Of a stretch of 15,705 bases of DNA, positions 1 to 15,705 are shown one piece after another (position 1 is the first letter of the stretch; the number at the start of each line of letters is the position of its first letter). Position numbers and translations under genes: made by a program. This DNA comes from a bacterium. Lineage in GTDB: Bacteria > UBP15 > UBA6099 > DSWB01. The notes under the pieces are model-generated. The model made no database searches. It had not been told where the DNA came from and saw only the letters and a program-made list of their open reading frames with translations. Location: the NCBI GenBank assembly GCA_020061125.1, contig JAGUYV010000204.1:1-15705 (forward strand), read 5' to 3'.

Positions 1-279
1 CCGCACTGCGCGCCGGTCCCGGACCGCGCCACGGCCGCGCCGGGATACATGCTCATACTGCGGGATCTGCTCGGCCGGGGGGCGCGCGCAGTCATCACAA
101 CCATGCAACGGCCCGGGCAGGCCGCCGCGGAACAGGTTCTGATCCGGTTCTACGCGGAAATGCGCGCGGGCGCGCCCCCGGCCCAGGCTCTGCGCGCCTC
201 ACAGATGCGAATGCTCAACGACCCGCAGTTCGCGGATCCCGCCCACTGGGCGCCGTTCTTTTATTCGGGAATTCCCTGA
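1..279 (+). CDS. CHAT-domain protein, C-terminal end (5'-truncated by window)
   Basis: Frame 1 is open from the first base to the TGA at 277-279, giving the last 92 residues of a longer protein. The pattern fits the end of a CHAT (caspase HetF associated with TPRs) domain: a GARAV-like strand (residues 27-31 of the fragment), an amphipathic segment with FYAEM, a G-x-P-x-x-AL-R helix, and a closing HWAPFFYSG resembling the family's yWaaFvl.G ending. CHAT domains are cysteine proteases of the caspase/separase clan, often fused to TPR repeats and used in signalling or defence. The catalytic His lies outside the window. A Cys at fragment residue 3 is at about the right distance to be the catalytic Cys, but its context is atypical. 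The ATG at 49 is internal to the domain and is not taken as the start. It converges on the next gene with 3 nt between stop codons and no terminator hairpin visible. Confidence 0.72.
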   Translation, partial: PHCAPVPDRATAAPGYMLILRDLLGRGARAVITTMQRPGQAAAEQVLIRFYAEMRAGAPPAQALRASQMRMLNDPQFADPAHWAPFFYSGIP

Positions 280-282
280 ATA

Positions 283-972
283 TCAGTCCCCGGAATCGTC
301 ACCTGAATCCGGGTTGGCCGGGGGTTCCGGGACCGCGCCAGCGTCCTTGGAAGAAAATTTGACGGACGATTTGGCGGTGTTGCCGGATGAAGAGGATTTT
401 TCGCCTGATTGGGATTTCTGTTCCGGCGAGGCCGGGGGCTTGACTCCGGCGAGCAGGTCTTCGAGCGCTTTGACCCGGCTGTTGGAATACCCCGCCACGA
501 ATCCGATGGCTTCCTTGAGCACCTGTTCCGAGACCATGGTCTGGGGCATTTTCACGGCGTACTGGATGAAGTACTGGTTGTCCTGCAGGAAAATGGAATA
601 GCTGCCGGGGTTGGTGTCGTAGCTGTTCTCGTCCAGAAGCTGCATCAGGAACACGCTGTTGACTTTCTCCGTGGACATGAGCGTGGTGCCGACCACGAGA
701 AGGGACGCCTCGGGGTTTTCGTTGGTGGCGGTGATGACCACCTCCCAGCCGAAGTCCCAGCCCGGCCGCGCATACAGAACTTTCCACATGCCGGTGTCCA
801 GTTTTTCTAGGAACTTGTAGCCCGGCTCGTTGTAGTCGGAAAGGATTTTCTGGATGGAATCGTTGTTGAGGGATTCCGCGGCGCGCGCAACGCCGGTGAA
901 GCCAATGATCCCCGCAAGAATCAGCGCAAACAACCCGTGCAAAACCGCCCTGTGAGCATGTCTATTCATCAT
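283..972 (-). CDS. Secreted protein of unknown function, possibly YbjN/CesT-like
   Basis: 229 residues. The N-terminus is a convincing Sec signal peptide: a basic MMNRHAHR region, a hydrophobic stretch at about 11-28, and an ARA-AES cleavage site near residue 31. The mature core (about 35-175) alternates beta-strand-like and helical segments. One stretch (LMQLLDEN, then SIFLQDNQYFIQYAV, then MVSEQVLKEAIGFV) resembles the YbjN/type III chaperone-like fold; this rests on pattern only and is not firm. The last 50 or so residues are a Ser/Lys/Pro/Asp-rich, probably disordered tail with no cysteine. No catalytic motif is seen. The first of two adjacent ATGs is chosen because a strong promoter ends 6 nt before it; there is no Shine-Dalgarno sequence. 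It diverges from the radical SAM gene and converges on the CHAT gene. Confidence 0.78.
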   Translation of the reverse strand: MMNRHAHRAVLHGLFALILAGIIGFTGVARAAESLNNDSIQKILSDYNEPGYKFLEKLDTGMWKVLYARPGWDFGWEVVITATNENPEASLLVVGTTLMSTEKVNSVFLMQLLDENSYDTNPGSYSIFLQDNQYFIQYAVKMPQTMVSEQVLKEAIGFVAGYSNSRVKALEDLLAGVKPPASPEQKSQSGEKSSSSGNTAKSSVKFSSKDAGAVPEPPANPDSGDDSGD

Positions 973-978
973 GCCCGC

Positions 979-1007
979 ATACTATCCCGAAAAATTCCCG
1001 GTGTCAA
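979..1007 (-). promoter_or_regulatory. Sigma70-like promoter giving a predicted leaderless mRNA
   Basis: On the minus strand TTGACA (1002-1007, a perfect -35) is followed after 17 nt by TAGTAT (979-984, 5/6 to the -10 consensus). Six bases then separate the -10 from the ATG at 972, so the expected +1 is the A of the start codon. Only GCGGGC lies between, with no Shine-Dalgarno motif. Confidence 0.7.
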
Positions 1008-1041
1008 TCTCGGTTGCGAATTCAAACACGGCGCACGCGCA

Positions 1042-1071
1042 TTGAAGTTTCCGCGCCCGCATTCCTATACT
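1042..1071 (+). promoter_or_regulatory. Probable sigma70-like promoter of the radical SAM gene
   Basis: TTGAAG (1042-1047), an 18-nt spacer and TATACT (1066-1071, 5/6 to the -10 consensus). The expected transcription start is near 1078-1080, only about 7-9 nt before the ATG at 1087. This makes the upstream in-frame ATGs, including 1075, unlikely starts. The divergent promoter at 979-1007 lies back to back with it. Confidence 0.5.
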
Positions 1072-1086
1072 TATATGGGACCGCGC

Positions 1087-2361
1087 ATGGAAAAATTTGT
1101 GGTAGACGACATGGAAGTGCTGTTCGACCACGGGGGCCGCAGCGACTGGGGCAAGTACACCTTTCCCGTGTTCTACGGCCTTCCGGTGATCGTGCGGTGG
1201 CGGCGGCACGAGTTCCACTTCAATCTCCTGGGCCAGGTGCGGCGCATCATGAGCCGGGCGCGCTACTGGCCCAACGCCCAGGAAACCCTCAAGCGCACCA
1301 TCGCCAACGACTGGATTTTCATGTCCACCTTCGGGTACGAGAGCAGCTTTTCGCTCATGAAAAGCCACTATGTGCCCATGACCTCGTATCACGACCCGGC
1401 CCTGTTCCTCAAGGAGGAGCGGCCCCTGGACAGCCCGTATGTGGCCCAGGCCCTCGAGACCTTCGACGAACTCGTGGCGCATGCCGGGGAACTGGCGCGC
1501 AATGGAGCGCCCCCGCGCGCCGCGGCCTTCCTCGAAAAAGTGTCCGGCTTCGGCCGCTCCGCTCTGGACGCCCAGCGCCGCCGCCTGCACGCCATCAACG
1601 GCGGCCACCTCACCGTGCTGCCGCCAGACACTATTGATGTGGAATACGAAATCATTCCGTTGCAAATCAGCGATGGCTGCACCGGCGGATGCGCGTTCTG
1701 CAAATTCAACGACGGCATCGGATTCCGCGTGCGCAGCCCCGAAAACATCAAAACCCAGGTCTCGGAACTCAAGTCGTTCTTCGGCGAGGATCTGATCAAC
1801 TACAACGCCGTGGTTCTGGGGCAGAACGACGCGCTGGCCGCGGGCGCGCACGCCATTGATTTCGCCGCGCGCCTGGCCTACGAGGAATTGCGCGTCGCTG
1901 ATTCGTATCACGACGGCAGTTTTCTCTACATGTTCGGCGGCGCGCACACGCTCCTGGACGCGGACGACGAGCTGTTCGAGGCCATGGACAATCTGCCGTT
2001 CGGCAATATTTTCATCAATGTGGGGCTGGAGTCGCCGCACGAGGACACGCTCCAGTTGCTGGGCAAGCCGCAGAGCGCGGCGGATGTGCGCCGAGCGTTC
2101 GAGAAAATCCGCCACGCGAACAGGGATTTCAACAAACTGAACATTTCATGCAACTTCGTGGTGGGAGACGACCTGCCCCGCGCGCATGTGGACGCGGTGC
2201 GGGATCTGCTGTCGAGCGCGGACACGCGCATGACCAAAGGCTGCGCCTATATTTCCCCGCTGGAAAACGCGGCTTCGCCGCGCCTCACGCGCAACGATTT
2301 CACGAGCATCAAGCTCGCCGCCAAAATGCCGGTCTTCCTCTATCTTGTGCAGCGGCTTTAA
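1087..2361 (+). CDS. Radical SAM protein of unrecognised subfamily
   Basis: 424 residues from the ATG at 1087. That start is chosen because the best promoter would initiate at about 1078-1080; a GGGA lies 6 nt upstream. Starts at 1075 or 937 are possible but would precede the transcript or overlap the divergent gene. The defining feature is C198-x3-C202-x2-C205 (CTGGCAFC), which binds the [4Fe-4S] cluster used to cleave S-adenosylmethionine. Further along come features of a radical SAM TIM barrel: a VVLGQNDAL segment, a FINVGLESPHEDTLQLLGK segment like the HemN/Elp3-type G-x-E strand, and ISCNFVVGDDLP. The first 190 or so residues form a separate N-terminal region rich in Trp, Tyr and His (FYGLPVIVRWRRHEFHF) that I cannot assign. 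There is no cysteine-rich SPASM tail and no B12 domain that I can see. No operon partner suggests the substrate. Confidence 0.85.
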   Translation: MEKFVVDDMEVLFDHGGRSDWGKYTFPVFYGLPVIVRWRRHEFHFNLLGQVRRIMSRARYWPNAQETLKRTIANDWIFMSTFGYESSFSLMKSHYVPMTSYHDPALFLKEERPLDSPYVAQALETFDELVAHAGELARNGAPPRAAAFLEKVSGFGRSALDAQRRRLHAINGGHLTVLPPDTIDVEYEIIPLQISDGCTGGCAFCKFNDGIGFRVRSPENIKTQVSELKSFFGEDLINYNAVVLGQNDALAAGAHAIDFAARLAYEELRVADSYHDGSFLYMFGGAHTLLDADDELFEAMDNLPFGNIFINVGLESPHEDTLQLLGKPQSAADVRRAFEKIRHANRDFNKLNISCNFVVGDDLPRAHVDAVRDLLSSADTRMTKGCAYISPLENAASPRLTRNDFTSIKLAAKMPVFLYLVQRL

Positions 2362-2376
2362 CAATGGATTGCGAAT

Positions 2377-2390
2377 AGCGGTCCGGGGCT
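2377..2390 (+). repeat. 14-bp direct repeat, left copy
   Basis: AGCGGTCCGGGGCT is identical to the copy at 3033-3046. It lies 15 bp after the radical SAM stop codon. The two copies bracket the gene-less block with the hairpin repeats. Confidence 0.6.
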
Positions 2391-2401
2391 GTTGAAATTC
2401 C

Positions 2402-2430
2402 TTTAACCTGGCAACAACGCAAGATATATA
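2402..2430 (+). promoter_or_regulatory. Weak promoter-like AT-rich signal
   Basis: TTTAAC (2402-2407), a 17-nt spacer and TATATA (2425-2430), in a tract that continues as ATATATAAAATT. The -35 match is poor. No gene start follows; a transcript from here would run into the hairpin at 2481-2502. It could be a remnant promoter or serve a small RNA; neither can be decided from sequence. Confidence 0.2.
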
Positions 2431-2475
2431 AAATTCGTTGCGCCCGGACAGGCGCGTATTGCCTTGCGTCAATTG

Positions 2476-2507
2476 GGAGCGGCGGGGTGCGGTGACCCCG
2501 CCCTACA
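2476..2507 (+). repeat. GC hairpin repeat, copy 1 (inverted relative to copies 2 and 3)
   Basis: This 32-nt unit is the perfect reverse complement of 2793-2824. Inside it GGCGGGGT (2481-2488) pairs with ACCCCGCC (2495-2502) across a 6-nt loop, so each copy is a strong 8-bp hairpin followed by CTACA. The form resembles REP-type intergenic repeats. Confidence 0.75.
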
Positions 2508-2706
2508 GACTTACCGTTGCTTTTCAGCCTCATTCGAGAGGGGCCTGCATTCTGCGTTAATGGCAAATAATCTGCTGCCTCAATTGTGCGCAACCCTGTT
2601 GGTGTACAGGATGCGCTCCCCAAAAAACAAAATCTTGTCTATTGTGCGATTCCCCACACAAGGCGCAGACGACGCAATAAAACGGTCCCTCCAATAGACT
2701 CCGTCT

Positions 2707-2733
2707 TGTAGGGCGGGGGCGCCGAACTCCGCC
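2707..2733 (-). repeat. GC hairpin repeat, copy 2 (diverged)
   Basis: It begins with the same TGTAGGGCGGGG as copy 3 and matches it at 23 of 27 positions. The stem can still form (GGCGG with CCGCC, plus one G-T wobble), so the changes partly preserve the hairpin. Confidence 0.65.
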
Positions 2734-2792
2734 ATGATTTTTAGCGCACAGCAATGCCGATCCGCAAATATTACGATCCGCTTCACGGGTTT

Positions 2793-2824
2793 TGTAGGGC
2801 GGGGTCACCGCACCCCGCCGCTCC
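2793..2824 (-). repeat. GC hairpin repeat, copy 3
   Basis: A perfect 32-nt inverted match to 2476-2507, with the same 8-bp GGCGGGGT/ACCCCGCC stem and 6-nt loop. It lies in the same orientation as the diverged copy at 2707-2733. Confidence 0.75.
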
Positions 2825-3032
2825 AAAGCAATGCGAGGCGGAATGCCGCTGCCCGGACAAGACGCATCTGACATTCCTTTGGTTGCAGGGTTGATCCCTC
2901 TCGCATAATGCAAGCACGGCTTTTTTGGGGCAACAGCCTTTCAGTCCCCATGTTTCGCTACCCTGCGACGGAACGAGCCAACTTGTGGAAAAGTGGAAAC
3001 CGTTGCACGCAGAGCATGCCCGTTGTTACGGC

Positions 3033-3046
3033 AGCGGTCCGGGGCT
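3033..3046 (+). repeat. 14-bp direct repeat, right copy
   Basis: Identical to 2377-2390. It overlaps the last two bases of the hydrolase gene's stop codon region (stop at 3045-3047 on the minus strand). Confidence 0.6.
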
Positions 3047-4286
3047 ATGATTCCCGGTCCAGGGTTTCGATCAGGTCAATGACCAGGGAACTCCAGCCGA
3101 AGTGCCCGGCGCCGTGGCCCTGGCTCGTGAACGGGTCGTAATACTCGCGGAACCCGCTGCGGTCCACCATGGCGATGGTGCGCAGGGCCAGCTCGCGCGC
3201 CATGTCCTGCCGCCCGTACCGGCGCAAACCCTCCACCATGAGCCAGTTGGTGTTCACCCACACGGTGCCGCGCCAGTATTGCACCTGGTCGAACGCCGGA
3301 TGCTTGATGTCAACGGTGGGAACCGGATATTCGGTCCAGAATGTGCCGGGATCGGACAGATGCGCGATGAGGCGTTCGGCCCGGTCCGGGGCCGCGATGC
3401 CCGCATACAGAGGCAGGAGCGAAAACGGGGTCAGAGCCTTGAGCATGCGCTCACCGCGGCCTTCGAGGCAGTAATACGCGCCCGTGGCCGGGTCGTACAT
3501 CTTGGTGTTGATGGCCTGCGCGGTGTCTTCCGAGCGCAACTCGTATTTTTCCCGCAGGCCGCCGTCGCCCAGTTCCCCGGCGATCCGCGCCAGGGTGGCG
3601 GTGTTGCGGCAGTAGTAGCAGTTCATGTCAATGGCTTCCACATCGAATAGGGACACGCGGCGCATGCGCTCGCTCCGGTACCCGGACACGAAGTTGAAGA
3701 GCATGATGAGCTTTGTTTTGGGGATGTTGAATTTCCAGCGTTTGAATTTCGCGGGGTCCACGCCGAAGATGGTGTCCCAACGCGGCGAGTTGTCTATGCC
3801 GGTTTCCCAGGGGTGATACACGCTGATGAGGGCGTCGCCGTCCGGGTCGCGGTCCACGCTCAACCAGTCGTGATACCGGCACAGGGGCTGGAACATTTCT
3901 TCGAGGAACGCCCTGTCGCCGGTGATTTCATAGATGCCCCAGACCGCGTCGGCCAGGATGGGGGGCTGGGTGATGCCGCTGGTGTCGCGGCCGGTGAAGT
4001 GCTCGAAGCGGCGGTAGAAAGGCCGCAGGTGCACCATGTTGGGGATGCGCCCGTCGGGCCACTGGCCGCTGACAAGGGAGCGCAGCTCGTTTTTGGCGAA
4101 ATCCGGGTCGAACCAGCGCAGGGCCATGACATGGAAACACGAGTCCCACAGCCACTGGCCCTGATACATGATGTCGTCGGGGCAAGTGAAATGGTAGTCT
4201 TTGCCGTTCTTGCGCAGTGTGCGCCGGTTGCGGTGGAGCAATCGTTCGGCGCCCTGGCGCACGCGATTCATGGCGGATTTGTCCAT
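3045..4286 (-). CDS. GH63-type mannosylglycerate/glucosylglycerate hydrolase-like protein
   Basis: 413 residues, the usual size for bacterial GH63 single-domain enzymes with an (alpha/alpha)6 barrel. Motifs of the mannosylglycerate/glucosylglycerate hydrolase group are present: WLWDSCFH with Asp48, SGQWPDGRIPNMV, TSGITQPP with Gln107, HPWETGIDNSPRWD (159-171), VQYWRGTVWVNTNWL (335-349), and REYYDP with Glu381. In the Thermus enzyme the corresponding Asp and Glu are, from memory, the catalytic acid and base. Such enzymes release glycerate from the osmolytes mannosylglycerate or glucosylglycerate; the exact substrate cannot be read from sequence, and other GH63/GH15-like alpha-glycosidases are possible. 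There is no signal peptide, so it is probably cytoplasmic. The ATG lies 3 nt after the thymidylate kinase stop with only a distant AGGA, which suggests translational coupling; an alternative ATG is at 4271. Confidence 0.85.
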   Translation of the reverse strand: MDKSAMNRVRQGAERLLHRNRRTLRKNGKDYHFTCPDDIMYQGQWLWDSCFHVMALRWFDPDFAKNELRSLVSGQWPDGRIPNMVHLRPFYRRFEHFTGRDTSGITQPPILADAVWGIYEITGDRAFLEEMFQPLCRYHDWLSVDRDPDGDALISVYHPWETGIDNSPRWDTIFGVDPAKFKRWKFNIPKTKLIMLFNFVSGYRSERMRRVSLFDVEAIDMNCYYCRNTATLARIAGELGDGGLREKYELRSEDTAQAINTKMYDPATGAYYCLEGRGERMLKALTPFSLLPLYAGIAAPDRAERLIAHLSDPGTFWTEYPVPTVDIKHPAFDQVQYWRGTVWVNTNWLMVEGLRRYGRQDMARELALRTIAMVDRSGFREYYDPFTSQGHGAGHFGWSSLVIDLIETLDRES

Positions 4287-4289
4287 GGG

Positions 4290-4943
4290 TCAGTCGCAGG
4301 TCCTTTCACTGATGAGAGCGCTCACGCGCCGGCTCACCTCGCGCGCCACGGCCGCGGGACGCTGCGCGCCTTTGATGCGTACGAAAAACGGATCGTCCAT
4401 GGCGTCGAAAATGGCCGCGACCCGTTCGAGAAACTCGAGTTTTTCATACCCGGCGTTCGCGCCGCCGCGTTTTTTGTTGATGCGCGCGATGCCCGCGCGG
4501 GGCGTTATGCGGATATAGAACACGGCGTCGGGACGCGGGAACCGGTGGGTTTTCTCATTGAGCCGCCGCAGGGCCGCAGGGTCCGCGCCCAGCGCGCCCT
4601 GATAAGCGATGGTGGAAAAATAGTAGCGATCGCAGATCACGATGGCGCCGCGCCGCAGGGCCGGGCGGATGACCTGGCGCACATGCTCGCGCCGATCCTG
4701 CACGAAAATCCCGATTTCCTGGTCCAGGGAGGTTCCGGAGCGGCCTTTGGCGGCGATGTCCCGGATTTTACGGCCCCATGGCCCGTCCGTTGGTTCGCGG
4801 GTCAGCACGGCATCCCAGCCCCGGGCCTCGAGATCATGGAACAGACGCGCGGCCTGGGTACTCTTGCCGGACCCGTCTATGCCTTCAAAAACGATAAAAA
4901 GACCTTTATCAATGCGTTTTTTCTGATTATCCGTCGTTTTCAT
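4290..4943 (-). CDS. tmk: Thymidylate kinase (dTMP kinase)
   Basis: 217 residues, typical for the family. It phosphorylates dTMP to dTDP with ATP in the cytoplasm, an essential step toward dTTP. The P-loop is GIDGSGKST (residues 21-29), preceded by FIVFE. TREP (48-51) matches the substrate-binding strand, CDRYYFSTIAYQG (104-116) is the DR(Y/H) signature, and a basic LID segment RINKKRGG lies near residues 154-161. The P-loop lacks Arg and the LID is basic, as in the E. coli-like (type II) enzymes. The ATG is set by GGAGG at 4948-4952, 4 nt upstream, and a good promoter just beyond it. It is first in a two-gene unit with the GH63 hydrolase, a pairing with no obvious metabolic logic. Confidence 0.95.
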   Translation of the reverse strand: MKTTDNQKKRIDKGLFIVFEGIDGSGKSTQAARLFHDLEARGWDAVLTREPTDGPWGRKIRDIAAKGRSGTSLDQEIGIFVQDRREHVRQVIRPALRRGAIVICDRYYFSTIAYQGALGADPAALRRLNEKTHRFPRPDAVFYIRITPRAGIARINKKRGGANAGYEKLEFLERVAAIFDAMDDPFFVRIKGAQRPAAVAREVSRRVSALISERTCD

Positions 4944-4947
4944 AATG

Positions 4948-4952
4948 CCTCC
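4948..4952 (-). promoter_or_regulatory. Ribosome binding site of tmk
   Basis: GGAGG on the minus strand, 4 nt before the ATG at 4943. It fixes the start of tmk. Confidence 0.75.
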
Positions 4953-4963
4953 GGCGCGTTGAT

Positions 4964-4992
4964 ATTTTACGGCATAATGCGCGCCCCGGCAA
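4964..4992 (-). promoter_or_regulatory. Sigma70-like promoter of tmk
   Basis: On the minus strand TTGCCG (4987-4992), 17-nt spacer, TAAAAT (4964-4969). The expected start is near 4957, leaving a leader of about 14 nt that just accommodates the GGAGG. Confidence 0.6.
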
Positions 4993-5076
4993 GAATCCCG
5001 CAGAGGTCCCGCGAGGCCCCTTGCGCGAACCCGCGGGAACTTGTATATTTTCCGCCTGTCTAAATGAAGTAGCGCA

Positions 5077-5105
5077 TGTCAATTTGTTTCTATATTCTGG
5101 ATAAT
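5077..5105 (+). promoter_or_regulatory. Possible promoter region of the PBP/SecA operon
   Basis: The 5' region of the PBP gene is AT-rich (about 5081-5128), unlike its surroundings. The best-spaced boxes are TGTCAA (5077-5082), 17 nt, GATAAT (5100-5105). Alternatives such as TATATT at 5091 or TTGTTT at 5084 exist, so the exact boxes are uncertain. Confidence 0.3.
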
Positions 5106-5147
5106 AGAAAATAGATACAAAACATTACTTTGAAGCGGAAACGAGTC

Positions 5148-7757
5148 ATGGCAACACAACAACCCAATGGAAAATCGGCGAAGCCGAACGGGGCAGGCAA
5201 GCCCGCTGCAAAGGCCAAGTCCGCAACCGGCAAAATTACGCGCAATAAAAAGCGCGGCAGCATGGGCTGCATGACCTGCCTGGCGGTTATGAGCGTGATC
5301 GTGGTCGCGGGCATCGTGGCGGCTCTGTGGGGCACAGCCTGGGGCGTTATGAAAGTCTCGAAAATGACCCAGGACCTGCCCAATGAAATCTCCCTGTTCC
5401 CCCTGGAGCACACCAGCTACATGTACGCGTCGGACGGCATGTTTCTCAAGGAACTGCACGGCGACGAGAACCGCGAGTACGCGAACATCAACGAACTGCC
5501 CGCGTCGCTGCAGCAGGCGGTCATAGCCATCGAGGACGAGCGCTACTACAAGCACAACGGCGTGGACATCGAGGGCGTGGGCCGCGCGTTCCGTGACTTC
5601 TTCGCTTCGCGCACCTTCTCCGGCGGCGGCGCCAGCACCATCACCATGCAGACCGCCAAGAACATCTTCCTGTCCCGCGAACAGACCTGGGACCGCAAAA
5701 TCAAGCAGGCCCTGCTCGCCATGGACCTGGAGAAGAAATATTCCAAGCAGGAAATCCTGGAGTATTACCTGAACCTGAACTACTTCGGCGAGGGCGCGTA
5801 CGGAGCGTCCAAAGCCGCCGAAGTGTATTATGGAAAAGACATCCGGAAACAGCGGCTGACCGTGGCGGAGTCGGCCATGCTCGCGGCCGTGCTCAAGGGG
5901 CCGGGCCTGTATTCCCCGTTCCGCAACCCGGACGCGGCCCTGCGCCGCCGCAACGCCGTGGTCCAGAAAATGCACGAACTGGGCTACATTTCCACGGGCG
6001 AATATCAGGAGGCCATCAACGAACCCCTGCCCCGCCGCCGCCATCACCGCGGCAGCCGGTTCATGTACTATGTAACCTTCGCCCAGGCGCAGCTCACGGA
6101 CAAAAAAGGGCCGTTCAAGTATTCCAACAAGGAAATCAACACCGAGGGCATGCGCATCTATGTGGCCATGGATCCCAAGCTGCAGTTTTTCGCCGAGCGC
6201 ACGGTGCGCGGCGGCGTGGTGGCCGCCAACCTGTTCCTGGCCCCGGGCCGCTCGGGCGCGGACGCCGCTCTGCTGGCCTATGCGCGCTCCACGGATGTGA
6301 ATCTGCTCACCGTGGACAGCATGGAAGCCTACCGCCAGTTCATCGAGGACCACATCGCGGAATATTGCTCGGTGTGCGTCAAGAAGGGCAAAGCCGGCGA
6401 CGGCGCATGCAACAAGATCGAGGCCTCGTTCGCGCCCCTGCCCGGAGTCAAAAAAGAAGGCAAGTGCTACGCCCTGGACATGTACAATCCCGGCACCTCG
6501 GAAGTGCGCTCGGACATCGTGAACAAAGTCAACGACATCAAACACGCGCGCGAAACCGCGCTGTCCACCAAGCGCGTGCAGCAGGGCGCCATTGCGGCCG
6601 TGGAAGTGCAGACCGGCCGCGTGCTGGCCCTTGCCGGCGGCGTGGGATTCGACGAATCCAAGTACAACCGCGCCTGGCAGGCCGAGCGCCAGCCCGGCTC
6701 TTCGTTTAAGCCCTTTGTATACATGACCGCCATCAAGCAGGGCTATCCCATGGAAAGCTCGGTGTCGGATTCCCGCTTCTGCATCCGGGACTGGTGTCCG
6801 CGCAACTATGGCGGCAGCTACGGCAGCGGCGCCATGGTCAGCTTCCACCAGGCGCTGGTTGTCTCGAAAAATGTGCCTGCGGTGCGCGTGGGGCAGATGG
6901 TGGGAACCGACGAAGTCATCGCACTCTGTCGCGATCTGGGCATCACCGGACACATGGATTCCACCCCGTCACTTCCCCTGGGCACGGCCTCGATATCGCC
7001 CCTGCAGATGGCCCTGGCCTACGGCGCCATCGCCAACGGCGGCTTCCGCATCAATCCAGTAGCCGTTGACAGAATCCTCACCCGACAGGGCACGCCCCTC
7101 TACAAATACGAGTTCAAGCGCGGCAAGCAGGTACTGTCCGACAATGTGGTGGCCCGCATCGTGCCGGTCATGCAGGATGTCATGACCCGCGGCACGGGCA
7201 CCGGAGCGCAAATCGGGTATCCCGCGGCGGGCAAAACCGGAACCACCAACAACTTCAACGACGCCTGGTTCGTGGGCTATACGCCCAAAATCGCAACGGC
7301 CGCCTGGCTGGGCAACGACGACAACTCCCTGCTCTGCACCACGGTCACAACGCGCGGCGGCACCCGCTACTGCGGCGGAGCGCACATCGCCGGCGGCACC
7401 ATCCCCGCGCCCTTCTGGCGCGACTTCATGAAACACGCGGCCGCGGAACTCGGGTCCGCGGAATTCGAACTGCCCCCCAAAGACACGGAAATGCACCGCG
7501 TGAGCGTCGGATCCGGCGCGCGCCGCGAAACTGAACCAAGCGCCGTGGAATTTGAAACCGATTACGAAAGCCTGGAGTTCAACCCGCCCGGCGCGGAAAT
7601 CGAGATTCAGGATGTGCCCGCGCCCACCAACAGGCCTCTGCCCAGGGACTTCTTCGAGGAGCCGCAGAGAAAACCGCCCAGAAGCGATCAGGATCTGTTC
7701 CCAAGAAACGACAATAACAACCGGCCGCCCGTGGCGGACGAAGAAAATCTGTTCTGA
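5148..7757 (+). CDS. mrcA: Penicillin-binding protein 1A family (bifunctional transglycosylase/transpeptidase)
   Basis: 869 residues from the ATG at 5148 (a TTG six codons earlier is less likely). It polymerises lipid II glycan strands and cross-links stem peptides on the outer face of the inner membrane. A Lys-rich cytoplasmic tail (1-37) is followed by one membrane segment (about 43-65). The GT51 domain shows AIEDERYYKH with catalytic Glu129, GGASTITMQ and KYSKQEILEYYLN with YFGEGAYGASKAAEVYYGK. The transpeptidase domain carries all three active-site motifs: SSFK (Ser518), SKN (573-575) and KTG (696-698). Between the two domains lies an insertion with four cysteines (407, 410, 421, 440). 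The last 100 or so residues are acidic, Pro/Asn-rich and probably disordered. It diverges from tmk and precedes secA by 93 nt. Confidence 0.93.
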   Translation: MATQQPNGKSAKPNGAGKPAAKAKSATGKITRNKKRGSMGCMTCLAVMSVIVVAGIVAALWGTAWGVMKVSKMTQDLPNEISLFPLEHTSYMYASDGMFLKELHGDENREYANINELPASLQQAVIAIEDERYYKHNGVDIEGVGRAFRDFFASRTFSGGGASTITMQTAKNIFLSREQTWDRKIKQALLAMDLEKKYSKQEILEYYLNLNYFGEGAYGASKAAEVYYGKDIRKQRLTVAESAMLAAVLKGPGLYSPFRNPDAALRRRNAVVQKMHELGYISTGEYQEAINEPLPRRRHHRGSRFMYYVTFAQAQLTDKKGPFKYSNKEINTEGMRIYVAMDPKLQFFAERTVRGGVVAANLFLAPGRSGADAALLAYARSTDVNLLTVDSMEAYRQFIEDHIAEYCSVCVKKGKAGDGACNKIEASFAPLPGVKKEGKCYALDMYNPGTSEVRSDIVNKVNDIKHARETALSTKRVQQGAIAAVEVQTGRVLALAGGVGFDESKYNRAWQAERQPGSSFKPFVYMTAIKQGYPMESSVSDSRFCIRDWCPRNYGGSYGSGAMVSFHQALVVSKNVPAVRVGQMVGTDEVIALCRDLGITGHMDSTPSLPLGTASISPLQMALAYGAIANGGFRINPVAVDRILTRQGTPLYKYEFKRGKQVLSDNVVARIVPVMQDVMTRGTGTGAQIGYPAAGKTGTTNNFNDAWFVGYTPKIATAAWLGNDDNSLLCTTVTTRGGTRYCGGAHIAGGTIPAPFWRDFMKHAAAELGSAEFELPPKDTEMHRVSVGSGARRETEPSAVEFETDYESLEFNPPGAEIEIQDVPAPTNRPLPRDFFEEPQRKPPRSDQDLFPRNDNNNRPPVADEENLF

Positions 7758-7834
7758 CACAGCGGCATGCGGCTATCCGCCGGGCCGGAGGGCGCGACGC
7801 GCCGCGCCGGTTCCGATTGGCCGCAACCATCAAC

Positions 7835-7841
7835 AGGAGTG
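7835..7841 (+). promoter_or_regulatory. Ribosome binding site of secA
   Basis: AGGAGTG ends 9 nt before the ATG at 7851. It decides for this start over the in-frame codon at 7767, whose extra 28 residues look unlike any SecA N-terminus. Confidence 0.65.
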
Positions 7842-7850
7842 ACAACTGGC

Positions 7851-10703
<2,853 letters not shown>

Positions 10704-10778
10704 CGCTCGAACGCCACTCCCGCCTCCCGCGCGGGATCAGTCGAATATCATTCACGCCGCGCCTCAATCCGCGGCCAC

Positions 10779-10784
10779 GGAGGA
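10779..10784 (+). promoter_or_regulatory. Ribosome binding site of prfB
   Basis: GGAGGA ends 9 nt before the ATG at 10794. It supports translation starting upstream of the in-frame TGA, as expected for frameshift-controlled prfB. Confidence 0.65.
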
Positions 10785-10793
10785 ATCATCATC

Positions 10794-11913
10794 ATGCTCG
10801 ACAGCTCATGGGTCAGCGAACTCAAGGAACTCCAGCAAAAGGTGGAAAACATGCGGGGGTATCTTTGACATAGACAGCCTCAAATCCGATATCCAAAAAC
10901 TTGACGCGCAGATGTCCGAGCCGGGTTTCTGGGACGACCCCGAGAAGACCCGGCCCGTGATTCAGGAAAGCAAGGTCAAGAAAAACCGCGTGTCCAGCTT
11001 CGACAAGGTGAACACGCGCGTGAACGACGCCCTGCTCATGGCCGAGATGGCCGCCGAGGAGGACGACGAGGACACCCTCGAGGAGGTGCATCGAGAACTG
11101 CCCGCCATCGAGAAGGAAGTCAAACTCTTCGAGTTGTCCACGCTCCTCACCGGCGAGTACGACACAGGGAACGCGCTGTTGAGCATCCACGCGGGCGCGG
11201 GCGGCACAGAGGCCCAGGACTGGGCCGAAATGCTCCTGCGCATGTATCTGCGCTGGACCGAGATCAAGGGCTACAAGACAGACATCCTCGACATCGGCGA
11301 GGGCGAGGAAGCGGGCATCAAGAGCGCCGTGGTGAGCGTGGAGGGGCCGAACTCATTCGGGTTTCTGCGCGCGGAAAAGGGCATCCACCGCCTGGTGCGC
11401 ATCAGCCCCTTCGACTCCAACAGCCGCCGCCACACCTCGTTCGCGTCCGTGGATGTCATCCCCGAGATCGAGGACGATGTGGATGTGGACATCAATCCCG
11501 ACGACCTCAAGATTGACACCTACCGCTCGGGCGGAGCGGGCGGCCAGCATGTGAACAAGACCGACTCGGCCGTGCGCATCACGCACCTGCCCACGGGCCT
11601 GGTGGTGCAGTGCCAGAACGAGCGCTCGCAGTTCAAGAACAAGGCCGGCGCCATGAAAATCCTCCGCGCGCGCCTGTTCGAGCTGTACCGCAAGCAACAG
11701 GAGGAAAAAGTCACCGAACTGCACGGGGAACTCAAGGACATCGCCTGGGGCAGCCAGATCCGCAGCTATGTGTTCCACCCCTACAACATGGTCAAGGATC
11801 TGCGCACGCGTGAGGAAACGGGCAATGTGCAGGCGGTCATGGACGGAGACATTGACGATTTCATCTGGGCATACCTGCAGATGGAGGCGCGTGACAAGTC
11901 CAAAACCCAGTGA
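10794..11913 (+). CDS. prfB: Peptide chain release factor 2, with programmed +1 frameshift
   Basis: RF2 recognises UAA and UGA stops and releases the finished peptide. The gene begins at the ATG at 10794 and reads 24 codons to CTT (10863-10865), where an in-frame TGA (10866-10868) follows. Shifting +1 there continues as GAC (10867-10869) to the TGA at 11911-11913, giving 372 residues (E. coli RF2 has 365). The shifted frame carries the stop-codon-reading SPF tripeptide (204-206), the [12 protein letters not shown]-like region ([12 protein letters not shown]) and the catalytic GGQ (249-251), almost the same positions as in E. coli. Reading only the second frame from 10912 would omit the N-terminal helix. 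This is autoregulation, not a broken gene: low RF2 stalls at the TGA and favours the shift. It lies between secA and the secreted 5'-nucleotidase-like gene. Confidence 0.96.
10855..10869 (+). promoter_or_regulatory. prfB programmed +1 frameshift site
   Basis: An internal Shine-Dalgarno-like GGGGG (10855-10859), a 3-nt TAT, the slippery CTT, then TGA followed by C. From GGGGG on it matches the classical E. coli site base for base. TGA-C is a poor terminator context, which promotes shifting when RF2 is scarce. Confidence 0.95.
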
Positions 11914-11976
11914 CGCGCCAGGTGAAAGGTCCGGACCCGGATTTTCATTATTTAAGGAATGATGCCAAGGCGCCTG

Positions 11977-11984
11977 TAAGGAGG
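11977..11984 (+). promoter_or_regulatory. Strong ribosome binding site of the 5'-nucleotidase-like gene
   Basis: TAAGGAGG, the best Shine-Dalgarno match in the window, ends 9 nt before the ATG at 11994. It selects this start, which also begins a clean signal peptide. Confidence 0.8.
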
Positions 11985-11993
11985 CCTGGAACC

Positions 11994-12629
11994 ATGAAAA
12001 CGAAAATTCTGCTGGTGAGTCTGCTGCTCATATTCACCGCGCCCGCCATGGCGCAGAACGCGCGCGAGGAAAACCCGTCTGAAATCCGCGAAACCCTTTC
12101 CGGTAATGTGGTGGCGGACGCCATGCGCAAGGCCATGGGCGCGGATGTAGCGTTCGTGAACGCCGGATCCCTGGGCGCCGCGGATCCGGGGAGCCGGATC
12201 AATCAGGAAAATCTGTCCACAGTCGTACTGTTTCCGGATGATGTGGTCGTGGCCGTGCGTCTGAAGGGCGCCGACATTCTGGCGGCTCTGGAAAAAAGCG
12301 CGGCCTCCCTGCCCCGCCGCTCCAGCGGCTTCCTGCAGGTTTCAGGCATCTCTTTCACCGCCGATCCGAACAAGAAAACCGGCGAGCGCATCAGCAATGT
12401 CAAGGTCAACGGAAAACCCCTTGACCCCCTGGCGTTTTACCGCACCGCGCTCACCGATTTCTTGAGCAGCGGCGGCAGCGGGTTCACTTCGTTCAAAAAC
12501 GGCAAGCAGATTGAAAACTCCCCCGAGCTTGCCATCGGAGACATCGTGATTAAACATGCTGTGATTGACGACGCGGCGCGCGACGCCGTGGGCGGGCGCA
12601 TCACCATCCTGCCCGTCAAATCCCAGTAG
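11994..12629 (+). CDS. Secreted stand-alone 5'-nucleotidase C-terminal domain protein
   Basis: 211 residues. A Sec signal peptide (MKTK, hydrophobic 5-17, cleavage after AMA at about residue 20) precedes a single domain matching the 5'-nucleotidase C-terminal family (5_nucleotid_C, as in UshA): SGNVVADAMRKAMGADVAFVN, VVAVRLKGADILAALEKS, SGFLQVSGISFTAD, ERISNVKVNGKPLDPLAFYRTALTDFLSSGGSGF. The catalytic metallophosphatase domain that normally precedes it is absent, and nothing like it lies upstream: the preceding gene is prfB. Compared with UshA from memory, the binding residues Arg410, Asn431 and Asp504 appear replaced (Gly61, Asp83, Ser162), while Phe498 is kept (Phe156). A nucleotidase activity by itself is therefore unlikely; it may bind a ligand or partner with a separate phosphatase. 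It ends at a strong terminator. Confidence 0.82.
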   Translation: MKTKILLVSLLLIFTAPAMAQNAREENPSEIRETLSGNVVADAMRKAMGADVAFVNAGSLGAADPGSRINQENLSTVVLFPDDVVVAVRLKGADILAALEKSAASLPRRSSGFLQVSGISFTADPNKKTGERISNVKVNGKPLDPLAFYRTALTDFLSSGGSGFTSFKNGKQIENSPELAIGDIVIKHAVIDDAARDAVGGRITILPVKSQ

Positions 12630-12657
12630 CGCCCCAAACGCTTTCAGCCAAAACATC

Positions 12658-12701
12658 AAAGCCGCCCGCGCCGTGATGCGCGGGCGGCTTTTGTTTTGTT
12701 T
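12658..12701 (+). terminator. Rho-independent terminator
   Basis: A perfect 14-bp stem (12658-12671 with 12678-12691), GC-rich, with a 6-nt loop CGTGAT, followed by T-rich sequence (TTTTGTTTTGTTTTT). It closes the PBP-secA-prfB-nucleotidase-like direction. The opposite gene ends at 12727; A-runs on the left side are weaker, so bidirectional use is only possible. Confidence 0.93.
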
Positions 12702-12726
12702 TTCTGCAAGCGCGCATGGCGCTTCT

Positions 12727-13359
12727 TCATTCAGGCTGTTTCTGCTCTTCTGCCGGAGCTTTGCTGTCTTCCTTGTTTGTCTGCATGTCAAGTTGCATCT
12801 GCGACACATTGAATATGTATTCCCATTTCCCGCCGATTTTGCCGACATAATATAGCGTTTTGTGCCGCGCTCCCCAGGCGTCCATTTCCTGGGTCAGCAA
12901 TCCGCATTCCGCGACCTTCAATTCCTGCAAATTCTTCTTCATGACTTTGTCGTCGTACGCGCCGCCGTTGGCCTTGTTCAGCGTCGCCAGCGCGTCGTCG
13001 CACGCCACGGTTTCTTCCTTGACCGTGCAGTTCTCGGGTTCCGGCACCATGTCCAGAAATCCCTCGGCCATGGATTTGGCCATCTCCACCAGGCCTTCCA
13101 GGGTCTGGCCGGCCCACAGGTTTTCCCGGTCCGTTACGATGAACACCTGGTTGTCAATCACATCCATGGTGATCTTCTTGATGGCCTCGCGGTCGCACAG
13201 ATCCTTTGGCATGGCGCCGAAATCCGGCTTGGGCGGTTCCTGTTTCACAGCGGCTTTGCCGTCCTTGCCGCCGTCTTTTTTGCCGCTGCACCCGGCCGCG
13301 GCCAGCATTGCGCATGCGGCGGCGAAAAGCATCACCGCAAACACGATTCTGTTGCGCAT
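12727..13359 (-). CDS. Putative lipoprotein of unknown function
   Basis: 210 residues. The N-terminus has MRNR, a hydrophobic stretch (5-22) and a lipobox-like LAAAGC with Cys24, predicting a lipidated, membrane-anchored protein. A Gly/Lys/Glu-rich linker (25-45) follows. The rest (about 50-195) is mixed alpha/beta with four cysteines (in LCDRE, NCTVKE, VACDD, AECGL) that could form two disulfides outside the cytoplasm. The tail is Lys/Glu/Gln-rich. A Trp-Gly-x-Arg and KIGGKWEYIFN near the C-terminus look like a beta-hairpin; no family is recognised. The ATG at 13359 is chosen over the much longer open frame to 15045, which is the shadow of comM, because of the ribosome site at 13368-13374 and the signal sequence. 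It diverges from comM. Confidence 0.85.
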   Translation of the reverse strand: MRNRIVFAVMLFAAACAMLAAAGCSGKKDGGKDGKAAVKQEPPKPDFGAMPKDLCDREAIKKITMDVIDNQVFIVTDRENLWAGQTLEGLVEMAKSMAEGFLDMVPEPENCTVKEETVACDDALATLNKANGGAYDDKVMKKNLQELKVAECGLLTQEMDAWGARHKTLYYVGKIGGKWEYIFNVSQMQLDMQTNKEDSKAPAEEQKQPE

Positions 13360-13367
13360 TCTCTTGT

Positions 13368-13374
13368 CCTCCCC
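13368..13374 (-). promoter_or_regulatory. Ribosome binding site of the lipoprotein gene
   Basis: GGGGAGG on the minus strand, 8 nt before the ATG at 13359. It supports the short lipoprotein start. Confidence 0.75.
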
Positions 13375-13389
13375 GTCGTGGTTTTCCAC

Positions 13390-13419
13390 AGGGTAACACC
13401 GGGGGCCGGACGGCGTCAA
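13390..13419 (-). promoter_or_regulatory. Possible promoter of the lipoprotein gene
   Basis: On the minus strand TTGACG (13414-13419, 5/6 to consensus), 18-nt spacer, TACCCT (13390-13395, weak -10). The position fits a leader of about 20-25 nt containing the ribosome site. Confidence 0.4.
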
Positions 13420-13453
13420 TGCAGTGCGCGTGTTGCGTTCCGGCTTCGCGGGG

Positions 13454-13482
13454 TTGTGCCAAACTTCTGTACAGTGTACAAT
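13454..13482 (+). promoter_or_regulatory. Promoter of comM giving a predicted leaderless mRNA
   Basis: TTGTGC (13454-13459), 17-nt spacer, TACAAT (13477-13482, 5/6). Exactly six bases (ACGGCC) follow before the ATG at 13489, so +1 falls on the start codon and there is no Shine-Dalgarno sequence. The -10 overlaps the second of two palindromic TGTACA hexamers (13468-13473 and 13475-13480), a possible regulator site. Confidence 0.6.
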
Positions 13483-13488
13483 ACGGCC

Positions 13489-15024
13489 ATGTTTGCTCGC
13501 ACCCGAAGCGCAGCCACCATGGGCATTGACGCCTATGTGGTGGATGTGGAAGTCCATATCGCATCCAAGGGATACAAGGATCCCGTGATCGTGGGTCTGC
13601 CCGACGCTGCGGTCAAGGAAAGCTGGCAGCGGGTCAAGCTGGCGCTGCGCAACAGCGAACTGCCGCACTCGGAGCACGCCACGACCGTGAATCTTGCGCC
13701 CGCGCACACGCGCAAGGAAGGGCCGTCGTTCGACCTGCCCATGGCCGTGGGCGTAATGGCGGCCAGCGAGGTGTTTTCCGGAGATCTGTGGGAGCAGCTC
13801 CTGTTCGTGGGCGAGTTGTCCCTGGACGGCAAGCTGCGGCATGTGAACGGCGTGCTCCCCATCGCGCTCATGGCCGAGCGCAAGGGATTCGCGGGCATTG
13901 TGCTGCCGTCCGCAAATGCCGCCGAAGCCGCGCTCGTTCAGAATCTCAAAGTGTACCCCGCAGACACTCTGGAGCAGGTGTACCGGTTCCTCACCGGCGA
14001 GTTCGTGATCGAATCGCACCCCCCGGCCGGGCCGGAGGTGTGGAACGCGAGGCCATCTTACGGCGTGGACTTTTTCGACGTCAAGGGACAGGAAGCAGCC
14101 AAGAGGGCCATGGAGATCGCGGCCGCGGGCAACCACAACATCATCATGGTCGGCCCGCCGGGCAGCGGAAAAACCATGCTGGCCCGCCGCCTGTCCACCA
14201 TCCTGCCCAATCTCACGCGCGAGGAGTGCCTCGAAGTCACCAAGCTGTACAGCATCAAGGGCCTTCTGCGCGGAGGCGACGATGTGGTGCGCACGCGCCC
14301 GTTCCGCAGCCCGCATCATACCATCTCGAACATCGCCCTGGTCGGCGGCGGCACGATTCCCAAGCCCGGCGAGGTGTCCCTGGCCCATTTCGGCGTGCTG
14401 TTCCTGGACGAACTGCCCGAGTACAAACGCGATGTGCTCGAAGTGCTGCGCCAGCCCCTCGAAGACGGCACCGTGAGCATCGCCCGCGCCGCGCAGTCCC
14501 TGTCCTTCCCAGCGTCTTTCATCCTCGTGGGCGCTATGAACCCCTGCCCCTGCGGCTGGATGGGCGACTATGTGCGCGAGTGCACCTGCGCACCGCACCA
14601 GATCCAAAACTACCTCAAGAAAATCTCCGGCCCGCTTCTGGACCGCATTGACATCCATGTGGATGTCCCCCGGCTCGAACCCGAAAAACTCTCCTCCACC
14701 CCCACCGGCGAAACCTCCGAGGTCATCCGCGCGCGCACCCAGGAGGCGCGCGAGCGCCAGCTCCGCCGATACCGCGACGAACACATCTTCTCCAACGGAG
14801 AACTCGGCGGCCGCTTGCTGCGCAAATACTGCGCCCTGCCCCAGGACGCTGAAGACACCCTTATGCTCGCCATCAAGTCCTTCGGCTTCACCGCACGCGC
14901 CTACGACCGCATCCGCAAGCTCGCGCGCACCATCGCAGACCTCGCGGGCCGCGACCAGATCTCGCAGGCCGACATCGCCGAAGCCATCCAGTTGCGCAAC
15001 CTCGACAGAAAGTACTGGGGCTGA
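13489..15024 (+). CDS. comM: YifB/ComM family Mg-chelatase-like AAA+ ATPase
   Basis: 511 residues, the normal length. ComM is a hexameric branch-migration helicase that helps integrate incoming DNA during natural transformation; the family is also widespread in bacteria not known to be competent. The N-terminal domain has IVGLPDAAVKES, VNLAPAHTRKEGPSFDLPMAVGV and FVGELSLDGKLRHVNGVLP. The ATPase core has Walker A GPPGSGKT (222-229, Lys228), RSPHHTIS, and Walker B LFLDELPE (Asp307, Glu308). A cysteine cluster NPCPCG...C-T-C (Cys353, 355, 365, 367) looks zinc-binding and is typical of the family. The Mg_chelatase C-terminal helical domain ends the protein. The start at 13489 matches the usual M-x-A-R-T-x-S-A opening. 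The gene contains the window's only ACGT (14078). Confidence 0.95.
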   Translation: MFARTRSAATMGIDAYVVDVEVHIASKGYKDPVIVGLPDAAVKESWQRVKLALRNSELPHSEHATTVNLAPAHTRKEGPSFDLPMAVGVMAASEVFSGDLWEQLLFVGELSLDGKLRHVNGVLPIALMAERKGFAGIVLPSANAAEAALVQNLKVYPADTLEQVYRFLTGEFVIESHPPAGPEVWNARPSYGVDFFDVKGQEAAKRAMEIAAAGNHNIIMVGPPGSGKTMLARRLSTILPNLTREECLEVTKLYSIKGLLRGGDDVVRTRPFRSPHHTISNIALVGGGTIPKPGEVSLAHFGVLFLDELPEYKRDVLEVLRQPLEDGTVSIARAAQSLSFPASFILVGAMNPCPCGWMGDYVRECTCAPHQIQNYLKKISGPLLDRIDIHVDVPRLEPEKLSSTPTGETSEVIRARTQEARERQLRRYRDEHIFSNGELGGRLLRKYCALPQDAEDTLMLAIKSFGFTARAYDRIRKLARTIADLAGRDQISQADIAEAIQLRNLDRKYWG

Positions 15025-15031
15025 TATTTCG

Positions 15032-15059
15032 TCCACGAAGAGCACGAAAAGGCACGAAG
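15032..15059 (+). repeat. CACGAAG inverted repeat, left arm
   Basis: 28 nt built from three near-tandem CACGAA(G/A) units at 9-10 nt spacing. It matches the reverse complement of 15453-15480 at 25 of 28 positions. It starts 8 nt after the comM stop and ends 1 nt before the next gene's ATG. Confidence 0.85.
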
Positions 15060-15060
15060 A

Positions 15061-15450
15061 ATGAACACCAAGAGAGACGACATTCTATTCAAAGATGAAG
15101 TGTATGAAATCATAGGCGCGGCTATCGAAGTTCACATGCAACTTGGATCTGGATTTCTGGAAGCTGTATATCAGGAGGCCATGGAAAAAGAGCTTGCGGA
15201 ACGGCAAATCCCTTTCCATGCGCAAACGCCGATAAGAATTTATTACAAAAGCAAACCTCTGGATAAAGAGTACATAGCCGATTTTCTCTGCTATTCCAAG
15301 ATCATCGTTGAAATCAAAGCCATGGACAAAACAGGAACGCGCGAACAAGCCCAGCTCATCAATTACCTCAAAGCCTCACGCCACAGGCTTGGTCTCTTAA
15401 TCAACTTCGGCAGTCGTCACAAACTGCAATGGGAAAGACTCATTTTGTGA
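15061..15450 (+). CDS. GxxExxY family protein, PD-(D/E)XK nuclease-like
   Basis: 129 residues. The naming motif is GSGFLEAVY with Gly31, Glu34 and Tyr37. A nuclease-like core follows: Asp74 in YIADF, then Glu84-x-Lys86 in VEIKA, and Gln98-x3-Tyr102 in AQLINYLKAS, as expected of the PD-(D/E)XK fold. The family is known in many environmental bacteria, often as many copies per genome; its biological role is not established to my knowledge. The whole gene lies precisely between two inverted CACGAAG repeat arms, the left ending 1 nt before ATG and the right starting 2 nt after the TGA. Codon use is visibly more AT-rich than the flanking comM and rdgB genes. Only a weak GAAGA serves as a ribosome site. 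Together this suggests an acquired cassette inserted between comM and rdgB. Confidence 0.88.
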   Translation: MNTKRDDILFKDEVYEIIGAAIEVHMQLGSGFLEAVYQEAMEKELAERQIPFHAQTPIRIYYKSKPLDKEYIADFLCYSKIIVEIKAMDKTGTREQAQLINYLKASRHRLGLLINFGSRHKLQWERLIL

Positions 15451-15452
15451 CA

Positions 15453-15480
15453 CTTCGTGCGTCTTCGTGCCCTTCGTGGA
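15453..15480 (-). repeat. CACGAAG inverted repeat, right arm
   Basis: The reverse complement of the left arm with three mismatches, again three CACGAAG units. It begins 2 nt after the GxxExxY stop codon. The two arms could pair in the transcript or as cruciform DNA. Confidence 0.85.
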
Positions 15481-15508
15481 TCAATTTCTCTTCAATTCCG
15501 GGCGCCGC

Positions 15509-15514
15509 TATAAT
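15509..15514 (+). promoter_or_regulatory. -10 element upstream of rdgB
   Basis: A perfect TATAAT in a GC-rich setting, 35 nt before the ATG at 15550. No good -35 is seen (TTTCTC at 15485-15490 would be at 18 nt). It would give a leader of about 29 nt. Confidence 0.5.
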
Positions 15515-15536
15515 ATCGCCTGTGGCATAACGCTCC

Positions 15537-15542
15537 GGGAGG
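15537..15542 (+). promoter_or_regulatory. Ribosome binding site of rdgB
   Basis: GGGAGG, 7 nt before the ATG at 15550. It fixes the start. Confidence 0.7.
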
Positions 15543-15549
15543 CGCACGC

Positions 15550-15705
15550 ATGGAAATCATTCTGGCGTCATTCAACAAAAACAAAGCCCGGGAGATCGAG
15601 CAGATCCTGTCGCCGGTTGCGGTCAAGTGCCTGGCGGATCTCGGCGTGAACATGGATTTCGACGCAATCGAGGACGCGGACACCTATCGCGAGAACGCGC
15701 TGATA
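15550..15705 (+). CDS. rdgB: RdgB/HAM1 non-canonical purine NTP pyrophosphatase, N-terminal part
   Basis: The first 52 residues; the gene runs off the right edge. The opening MEIILASFNKNKAREIEQIL matches the family's signature of a short strand, then S/T-x-N-x-x-K (SFNKNK, residues 7-12), which contacts the nucleotide triphosphate. IEDADTYRENA (40-50) matches the next conserved segment, E-(D/T)-G-x-T-(F/Y)-x-x-N-A, although Gly is replaced by Ala43-Asp44 here. RdgB hydrolyses ITP, dITP and XTP to monophosphates, keeping deaminated purines out of DNA and RNA. Composition returns to GC-rich after the GxxExxY cassette. Confidence 0.92.
   Translation, partial: MEIILASFNKNKAREIEQILSPVAVKCLADLGVNMDFDAIEDADTYRENALI

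What the first reader, a model, noticed from the sequence alone, without database searches (positions are those of the whole stretch)
1..15705. Near-complete absence of the palindrome ACGT
A full read of the window finds ACGT once only (14078-14081, inside comM). At roughly 60% GC and independent bases about 50 would be expected, and ACGA, ACGC and ACGG are abundant throughout. The avoidance shows in synonymous choice: Asp, Asn, Tyr and His codons usually end in C here, yet before Val GTN codons they end in T (for example the Asp-Val-Asp-Val run near 11476 and Tyr-Val-Val-Asp-Val near 13533). This is what restriction pressure on ACGT would produce. Cytosine methylation of ACGT followed by deamination would also turn it into ATGT or ACAT, which fits the same pattern. 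Other four-base palindromes (GATC, CATG, GTAC, TGCA, TCGA) are present.
Basis: partly seen in the sequence, partly recalled or inferred. Interest (0 to 1): 0.72.

Follow-up and report, generated by a model that had tools for sequence, protein, structure and literature searches.

The report
Genome purged of ACGT restriction site
This uncultured bacterium has lost the DNA word ACGT, and about seven other words of the kind cut by restriction enzymes, from nearly its whole genome, which is the expected scar of long self-cutting pressure and is already known from bacteria such as Helicobacter pylori.

Summary
ACGT occurs once in the window (37 expected by Markov, 56 with independent bases). In 338 kb of the 4.1 Mb genome bin it occurs 41 times against 790; 26 of these lie in prophage contigs, 16S rRNA or a tRNA. 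In non-prophage coding DNA it is 10 against 627 when synonymous codons are shuffled. Six same-order genomes stand at 0.60-0.80 by that test, so the purge is private to this lineage. It also hits the reading frame where deamination would change the protein, and ACAT/ATGT is not enriched, so restriction-type selection is favoured over deamination alone. ACGT is not alone: CTSAG (0/254), RTCGAY, GRGCYC, CAGCTG, AAGCTT, CATATG and CTAG are purged too, all Type II-like sites. No ACGT enzyme could be assigned. The only C5 methyltransferase (with a DUF4928 nuclease and Vsr) is a recent import whose relatives mostly live in hosts with normal ACGT. The bin is 79% complete, so the enzyme may be unbinned or lost. 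Site avoidance is known (H. pylori ACGT O/E 0.05); this is an extreme new case, notable mainly for the number of purged sites against the few methyltransferases found.

The parts
1..15705 (.). Whole window: ACGT-free except for one site
   Evidence: 1 observed against 37.1 Markov; genome-wide purge
14078..14081 (.). The only ACGT, frame NAC|GT (Asp-Val) in comM
7767..10703 (+). secA: NAT|GT 8, NAC|GT 0 (elsewhere NAT 17, NAC 132)
5130..7757 (+). Penicillin-binding protein 1A-like gene: NAT|GT 7, NAC|GT 0 (elsewhere NAT 29, NAC 94)
   Evidence: gene name from sequence reading
10912..11913 (+). prfB-like gene, holds the Asp-Val-Asp-Val example: NAT|GT 6, NAC|GT 0 (elsewhere NAT 5, NAC 45)
   Evidence: gene name from sequence reading
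12862..15024 (+). Open frame containing comM (gene start probably near 13500): NAT|GT 9, NAC|GT 1
807..810 (.). Only CTAG in the window
10347..10352 (.). Only RTCGAY in the window

Best explanation
ACGT was removed over a long time by selection from one or more orthodox Type II restriction-modification systems that cut ACGT. Copies left briefly unmethylated were cut, so lineages that lost sites by any, mostly synonymous, change did better. Shown here: the purge, its genome-wide extent, its presence in all frames and in intergenic DNA, its lineage specificity, and its company of about seven other purged Type II-like words. Inferred: the cutting itself and its enzyme. The ACGT enzyme is probably outside the 79%-complete bin or has been lost.
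For: 10 against 627 ACGT by synonymous-codon shuffle, in all frames: ACG|T 3/191, NAC|GT 24/464, NNA|CGT 2/26 with islands included. Noncoding 4/74 outside islands. Order-mates 0.60-0.80, ACGTNNACGT 1 against 21-38. All 5-/6-mers below O/E 0.3 are palindromic words, members of degenerate palindromes, or CTCAG/CTGAG, equivalent to CTSAG. Survivors are in 16S rRNA, a tRNA and prophages. The imported C128 operon has 1 avoided site in 2.05 kb against 6-24 in 13 relatives. Positive control for the logic: genomes with MjaI-family nucleases show matching CTAG loss. Literature: avoidance follows long-lived Type II systems and persists after their loss (PMC4687349).
Against: No ACGT-specific methyltransferase or nuclease was identified in the bin. 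Several other strongly ACGT-purged genomes, some 99% complete, lack any C5 methyltransferase, and G019 has no PF01555 match either, so an unknown non-restriction cause cannot be excluded. Methylation was not measured.
Confidence: 0.8

Rival explanations
1. Cytosine methylation of ACGT followed by deamination to ATGT/ACAT removed the sites by mutation, without cutting.
For: Known ACGT systems use m5C (MaeII, PMC10113651; Hpy99XI, PMC10423294), and deamination is proposed for H. pylori. ACA before T is raised (24.7% against 7.5-14.7%).
Against: NNA|CGT is purged 2/26 although both deamination products change the residue; noncoding ACAT/ATGT is 0.89; ACT and ACC also rise before T, and ACA before T is raised in the unpurged mates too. 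Other purged words such as AAGCTT, CAGCTG and RTCGAY need a common cause.
Confidence: 0.07
2. The C128 operon (C5 methyltransferase, DUF4928 nuclease, Vsr) is the ACGT system and made the purge.
For: It is the only C5 methyltransferase in the bin; known ACGT systems are C5; a close relative (62-64% identity) sits in ACGT-purged G323.
Against: GC3 0.50 against a genome mean of 0.80 (sd 0.05) marks a recent import. Twelve hosts with 46-59% identical target-recognition regions have ACGT O/E 0.56-1.09. G191, congener of G323, is as purged with no C5 gene. G323 is the same contig as surveyed locus L050, so only 1 of 13 closest hosts is purged. However, no word at all is depleted in hosts of this family, so this survey cannot exclude ACGT.
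Confidence: 0.1
3. Codon-pair or compositional bias, not aimed at ACGT.
For: Order-mates also avoid ACGT mildly (0.60-0.80) and use NAT before GT more than elsewhere.
Against: 0.016 against 0.60-0.80; TCGA, GCGC, CCGG and CGCG are normal or high; noncoding DNA is purged as well; 16S rRNA keeps 6 sites.
Confidence: 0.03

Closest known systems
ACGT avoidance in Helicobacter pylori (Hpy99XI / HpyCH4IV site; PMC10423294, PMC3849833)
   Same: Extreme ACGT depletion (O/E 0.05 in whole genomes), alongside several other depleted restriction sites.
   Different: There an m5C ACGT methyltransferase is known and deamination is proposed as a main driver; here no ACGT enzyme is found and frame tests favour selection.
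Avoidance of orthodox Type II sites and traces of lost systems (Rusinov et al. 2015, PMC4687349)
   Same: Palindromic words avoided genome-wide, lineage-specific, often without a resident cognate system.
   Different: About eight words nearly eliminated in one genome, stronger than the usual partial depletion as far as I know (their Kr values were not compared number by number).
MaeII restriction-modification system (Methanococcus aeolicus, PMC10113651)
   Same: A Type II system for ACGT with an m5C methyltransferase.

Membership tests
Type II restriction-site avoidance | Site strongly under-represented against Markov and codon-preserving expectation | tested here: met
   41/790 Markov; 10/627 codon shuffle
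Type II restriction-site avoidance | Word is palindromic, of Type II form, and neighbours are not depleted | tested here: met
   Other NCGN palindromes normal; purged set made up of Type II-like words
Type II restriction-site avoidance | Lineage-specific rather than clade-wide | tested here: met
   Six order-mates at 0.60-0.80; ACGTNNACGT 21-38 against 1
Type II restriction-site avoidance | Cognate restriction-modification system present now or in near relatives | tested here: inconclusive
   No assignable ACGT enzyme; bin 79% complete
m5C deamination footprint | Excess of ATGT/ACAT and retention where loss is non-synonymous | tested here: not met
   ACAT/ATGT 0.89 in noncoding DNA; NNA|CGT 2/26
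MaeII / Hpy99XI-type ACGT system | C5 methyltransferase with ACGT target-recognition domain | not testable with these tools
   One C5 gene (C128), specificity unknown; reference sequences not available
MaeII / Hpy99XI-type ACGT system | ACGT methylated in the genome | not testable with these tools
   Needs nanopore or bisulfite reads

The most novel reading that the evidence does not exclude
The genome carries the scar of about eight restriction specificities (ACGT, CTSAG, RTCGAY, GRGCYC, CAGCTG, AAGCTT, CATATG, CTAG) while its bin encodes few methyltransferases. Either a large unbinned restriction island exists, with specificities such as RTCGAY and CTSAG that I do not recall as described palindromic prototypes (unchecked against REBASE), or most systems are lost and the purge is a fossil record. 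The imported C128 operon, already free of these words but unadapted in GC3, argues that restriction has been active recently.
Probability: 0.4. Interest if true: 0.55.

Novelty: new member of a known kind. Interest (0 to 1): 0.45.

Why it matters
Site avoidance records which restriction systems a lineage has met. Here the record is readable from a metagenome bin alone: it predicts specificities (ACGT, CTSAG, RTCGAY and others) to look for in an uncultured group, and it offers a reading-frame test that separates restriction selection from m5C deamination, a question raised by ACGT in H. pylori. It also shows which words a vector for such organisms should lack.

Tried and rejected
C172 N6/N4 methyltransferase as agent: homologues at 57-59% identity in five order-mates with near-normal ACGT; its nearest solved relative is 8urk, named only 'Methyltransferase'. 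C411: orthologues in all six mates. C38 D12 gene: DpnM/Dam-like, GATC only mildly low. A ~420-aa methyltransferase shared by several ACGT-purged genomes: paired in three of four with an MjaI-type nuclease, so it explains CTAG, not ACGT. Reading the C128 specificity from depleted words in hosts of its relatives: no word stood out. The trio in G323 looked like an independent link but its contig is identical to L050, already in the survey. Fold of DUF4928: confident model (pLDDT 83) but weak matches only, best MspJI at E 0.05. An early sample of G002 suggested partial depletion (18/51); more sequence gave 156/211. Literature searches for ACGT tetranucleotide surveys and for DUF4928 found nothing useful.

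Full report
Check. ACGT occurs once in the 15,705-base window, at 14078, against 55.7 expected with independent bases and 37.1 by second-order Markov; 300 Markov simulations never gave fewer than 22. It is the most depleted of all tetramers. ACGA, ACGC and ACGG are common, and other palindromes are near expectation except CTAG. The synonymous pattern is real: before GTN the window uses NAT 43 times and NAC once, elsewhere NAT 158 and NAC 526.

Extent. The window is contig C285 of a 4.1 Mb genome bin (79% complete, 513 contigs). In 338 kb read from it ACGT occurs 41 times against 790 by Markov. ACGTNNACGT occurs once in the whole bin while its reversal TGCANNTGCA occurs 82 times; the six same-order genomes have 21-38. 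With synonymous codons shuffled within genes, coding DNA has 29 ACGT against 681, or 10 against 627 without three prophage contigs. Order-mates stand at 0.60-0.80. Most survivors are where they are constrained or have recently arrived: six in 16S rRNA, one in a tRNA, nineteen in prophage-like contigs.

Selection or deamination. If m5C deamination alone were at work, NNA|CGT (Arg) should be kept, since both products change the amino acid. It is purged, 2 against 26; ACG|T is 3 against 191 and NAC|GT 24 against 464. In noncoding DNA outside islands ACGT is 4 against 74 and ACAT/ATGT is 0.89, not enriched. Before T, threonine ACG is replaced by ACA, ACC and ACT rather than by ACA alone. These results favour selection against the site. 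The counts in the Arg frame are small, so a share of deamination is not excluded.

Not only ACGT. Of all 5- and 6-mers with Markov expectation of at least 25, the only ones below O/E 0.3 are CTCAG (equivalent to CTSAG), the RTCGAY words, the GRGCYC words, CAGCTG, AAGCTT, CATATG and CGATCG; the next is at 0.41. By codon shuffle in 265 kb: CTSAG 0/254, RTCGAY 6/272, CAGCTG 2/109, GRGCYC 15/370, AAGCTT 2/26, CATATG 2/22, CTAG 12/58, CGATCG 15/125; controls GAATTC 1.04, GGATCC 1.05, YTCGAR 1.31. The near-elimination of ACGT, CTSAG, RTCGAY and AAGCTT is private to this genome; CAGCTG and CATATG are low across the order; GRGCYC is low in G002-G004 and G006; CTAG in G001 and G005; GATC in G002-G004 and G006. 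A set made up of Type II-like words is what restriction would leave. Three genomes carrying an MjaI-type (CTAG) pair show matching CTAG loss.

Which enzyme. Methyltransferases found in the bin: one C5 (C128), a DpnM-like D12 gene (C38), an N6/N4 gene shared by five mates (C172), a gene conserved in all mates (C411), and two on prophage-like contigs (C259, C78); PF02384 and PF07669 gave none. The C5 gene lies with a DUF4928 gene, called a Type II restriction enzyme by PADLOC, and a Vsr. Its GC3 of 0.50 against a genome mean of 0.80 marks a recent import. Eighty loci with related nucleases show ACGT O/E 0.56-1.45, including twelve hosts whose target-recognition region is 46-59% identical. No word is depleted in hosts of this family, so its specificity stays open. 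One host of a close relative, G323, is ACGT-purged, but its congener G191 is equally purged with no C5 gene detected. Several other strongly ACGT-purged genomes lack any C5 gene, so the missing enzyme is not peculiar to this bin.

A useful detail: the imported methyltransferase and nuclease genes hold one avoided site in 2.05 kb where thirteen relatives hold 6-24. Either restriction filtered the operon at entry, or purging has outrun GC adaptation; both suggest recent activity.

Known context. Avoidance of Type II sites, strongest for long-lived systems and often left behind after loss, is established (PMC4687349). H. pylori has ACGT at O/E 0.05 (PMC3849833), with an m5C ACGT methyltransferase and proposed deamination (PMC10423294). 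MaeII is an m5C ACGT system (PMC10113651). This genome is a further extreme case from an uncultured lineage; what is unusual is how many sites are nearly eliminated and how few methyltransferases the bin holds. Bins often lack mobile islands (general knowledge), so enzymes may simply be unbinned.

Noticed in passing
whole bin; window lacks CTSAG, GRGCYC, CAGCTG, AAGCTT and CATATG: At least seven further Type II-like words are nearly eliminated besides ACGT.
   Followed up: yes
L001:417-2871 (contig C128 of the same bin): Imported operon of C5 methyltransferase, DUF4928 nuclease and Vsr, GC3 0.50 against 0.80, almost free of the avoided words.
   Followed up: partly
L213 (G019): A 99% complete genome with ACGT 0 against 90.8 in 20 kb and no PF00145 or PF01555 match at all.
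   Followed up: no
L228, L229, L243 (G050, G102, G266): MjaI-type CTAG systems in genomes with very low CTAG (1/11.9, 3/77.6, 3/60.0).
   Followed up: partly
L025-L027 (G001) and L037-L039 (G005): CTAG nearly absent (1/30 and 0/31) in two same-order genomes; GATC low in G002-G004 and G006.
   Followed up: no
L130, L133, L148: Prophage-like contigs share the avoidance of CTSAG, GRGCYC and RTCGAY but are only partly purged of ACGT (19/52).
   Followed up: partly
window 15061-15450: GxxExxY-like small protein directly after comM, preceded by a repeat-like reading (STKSTKRHEE).
   Followed up: no
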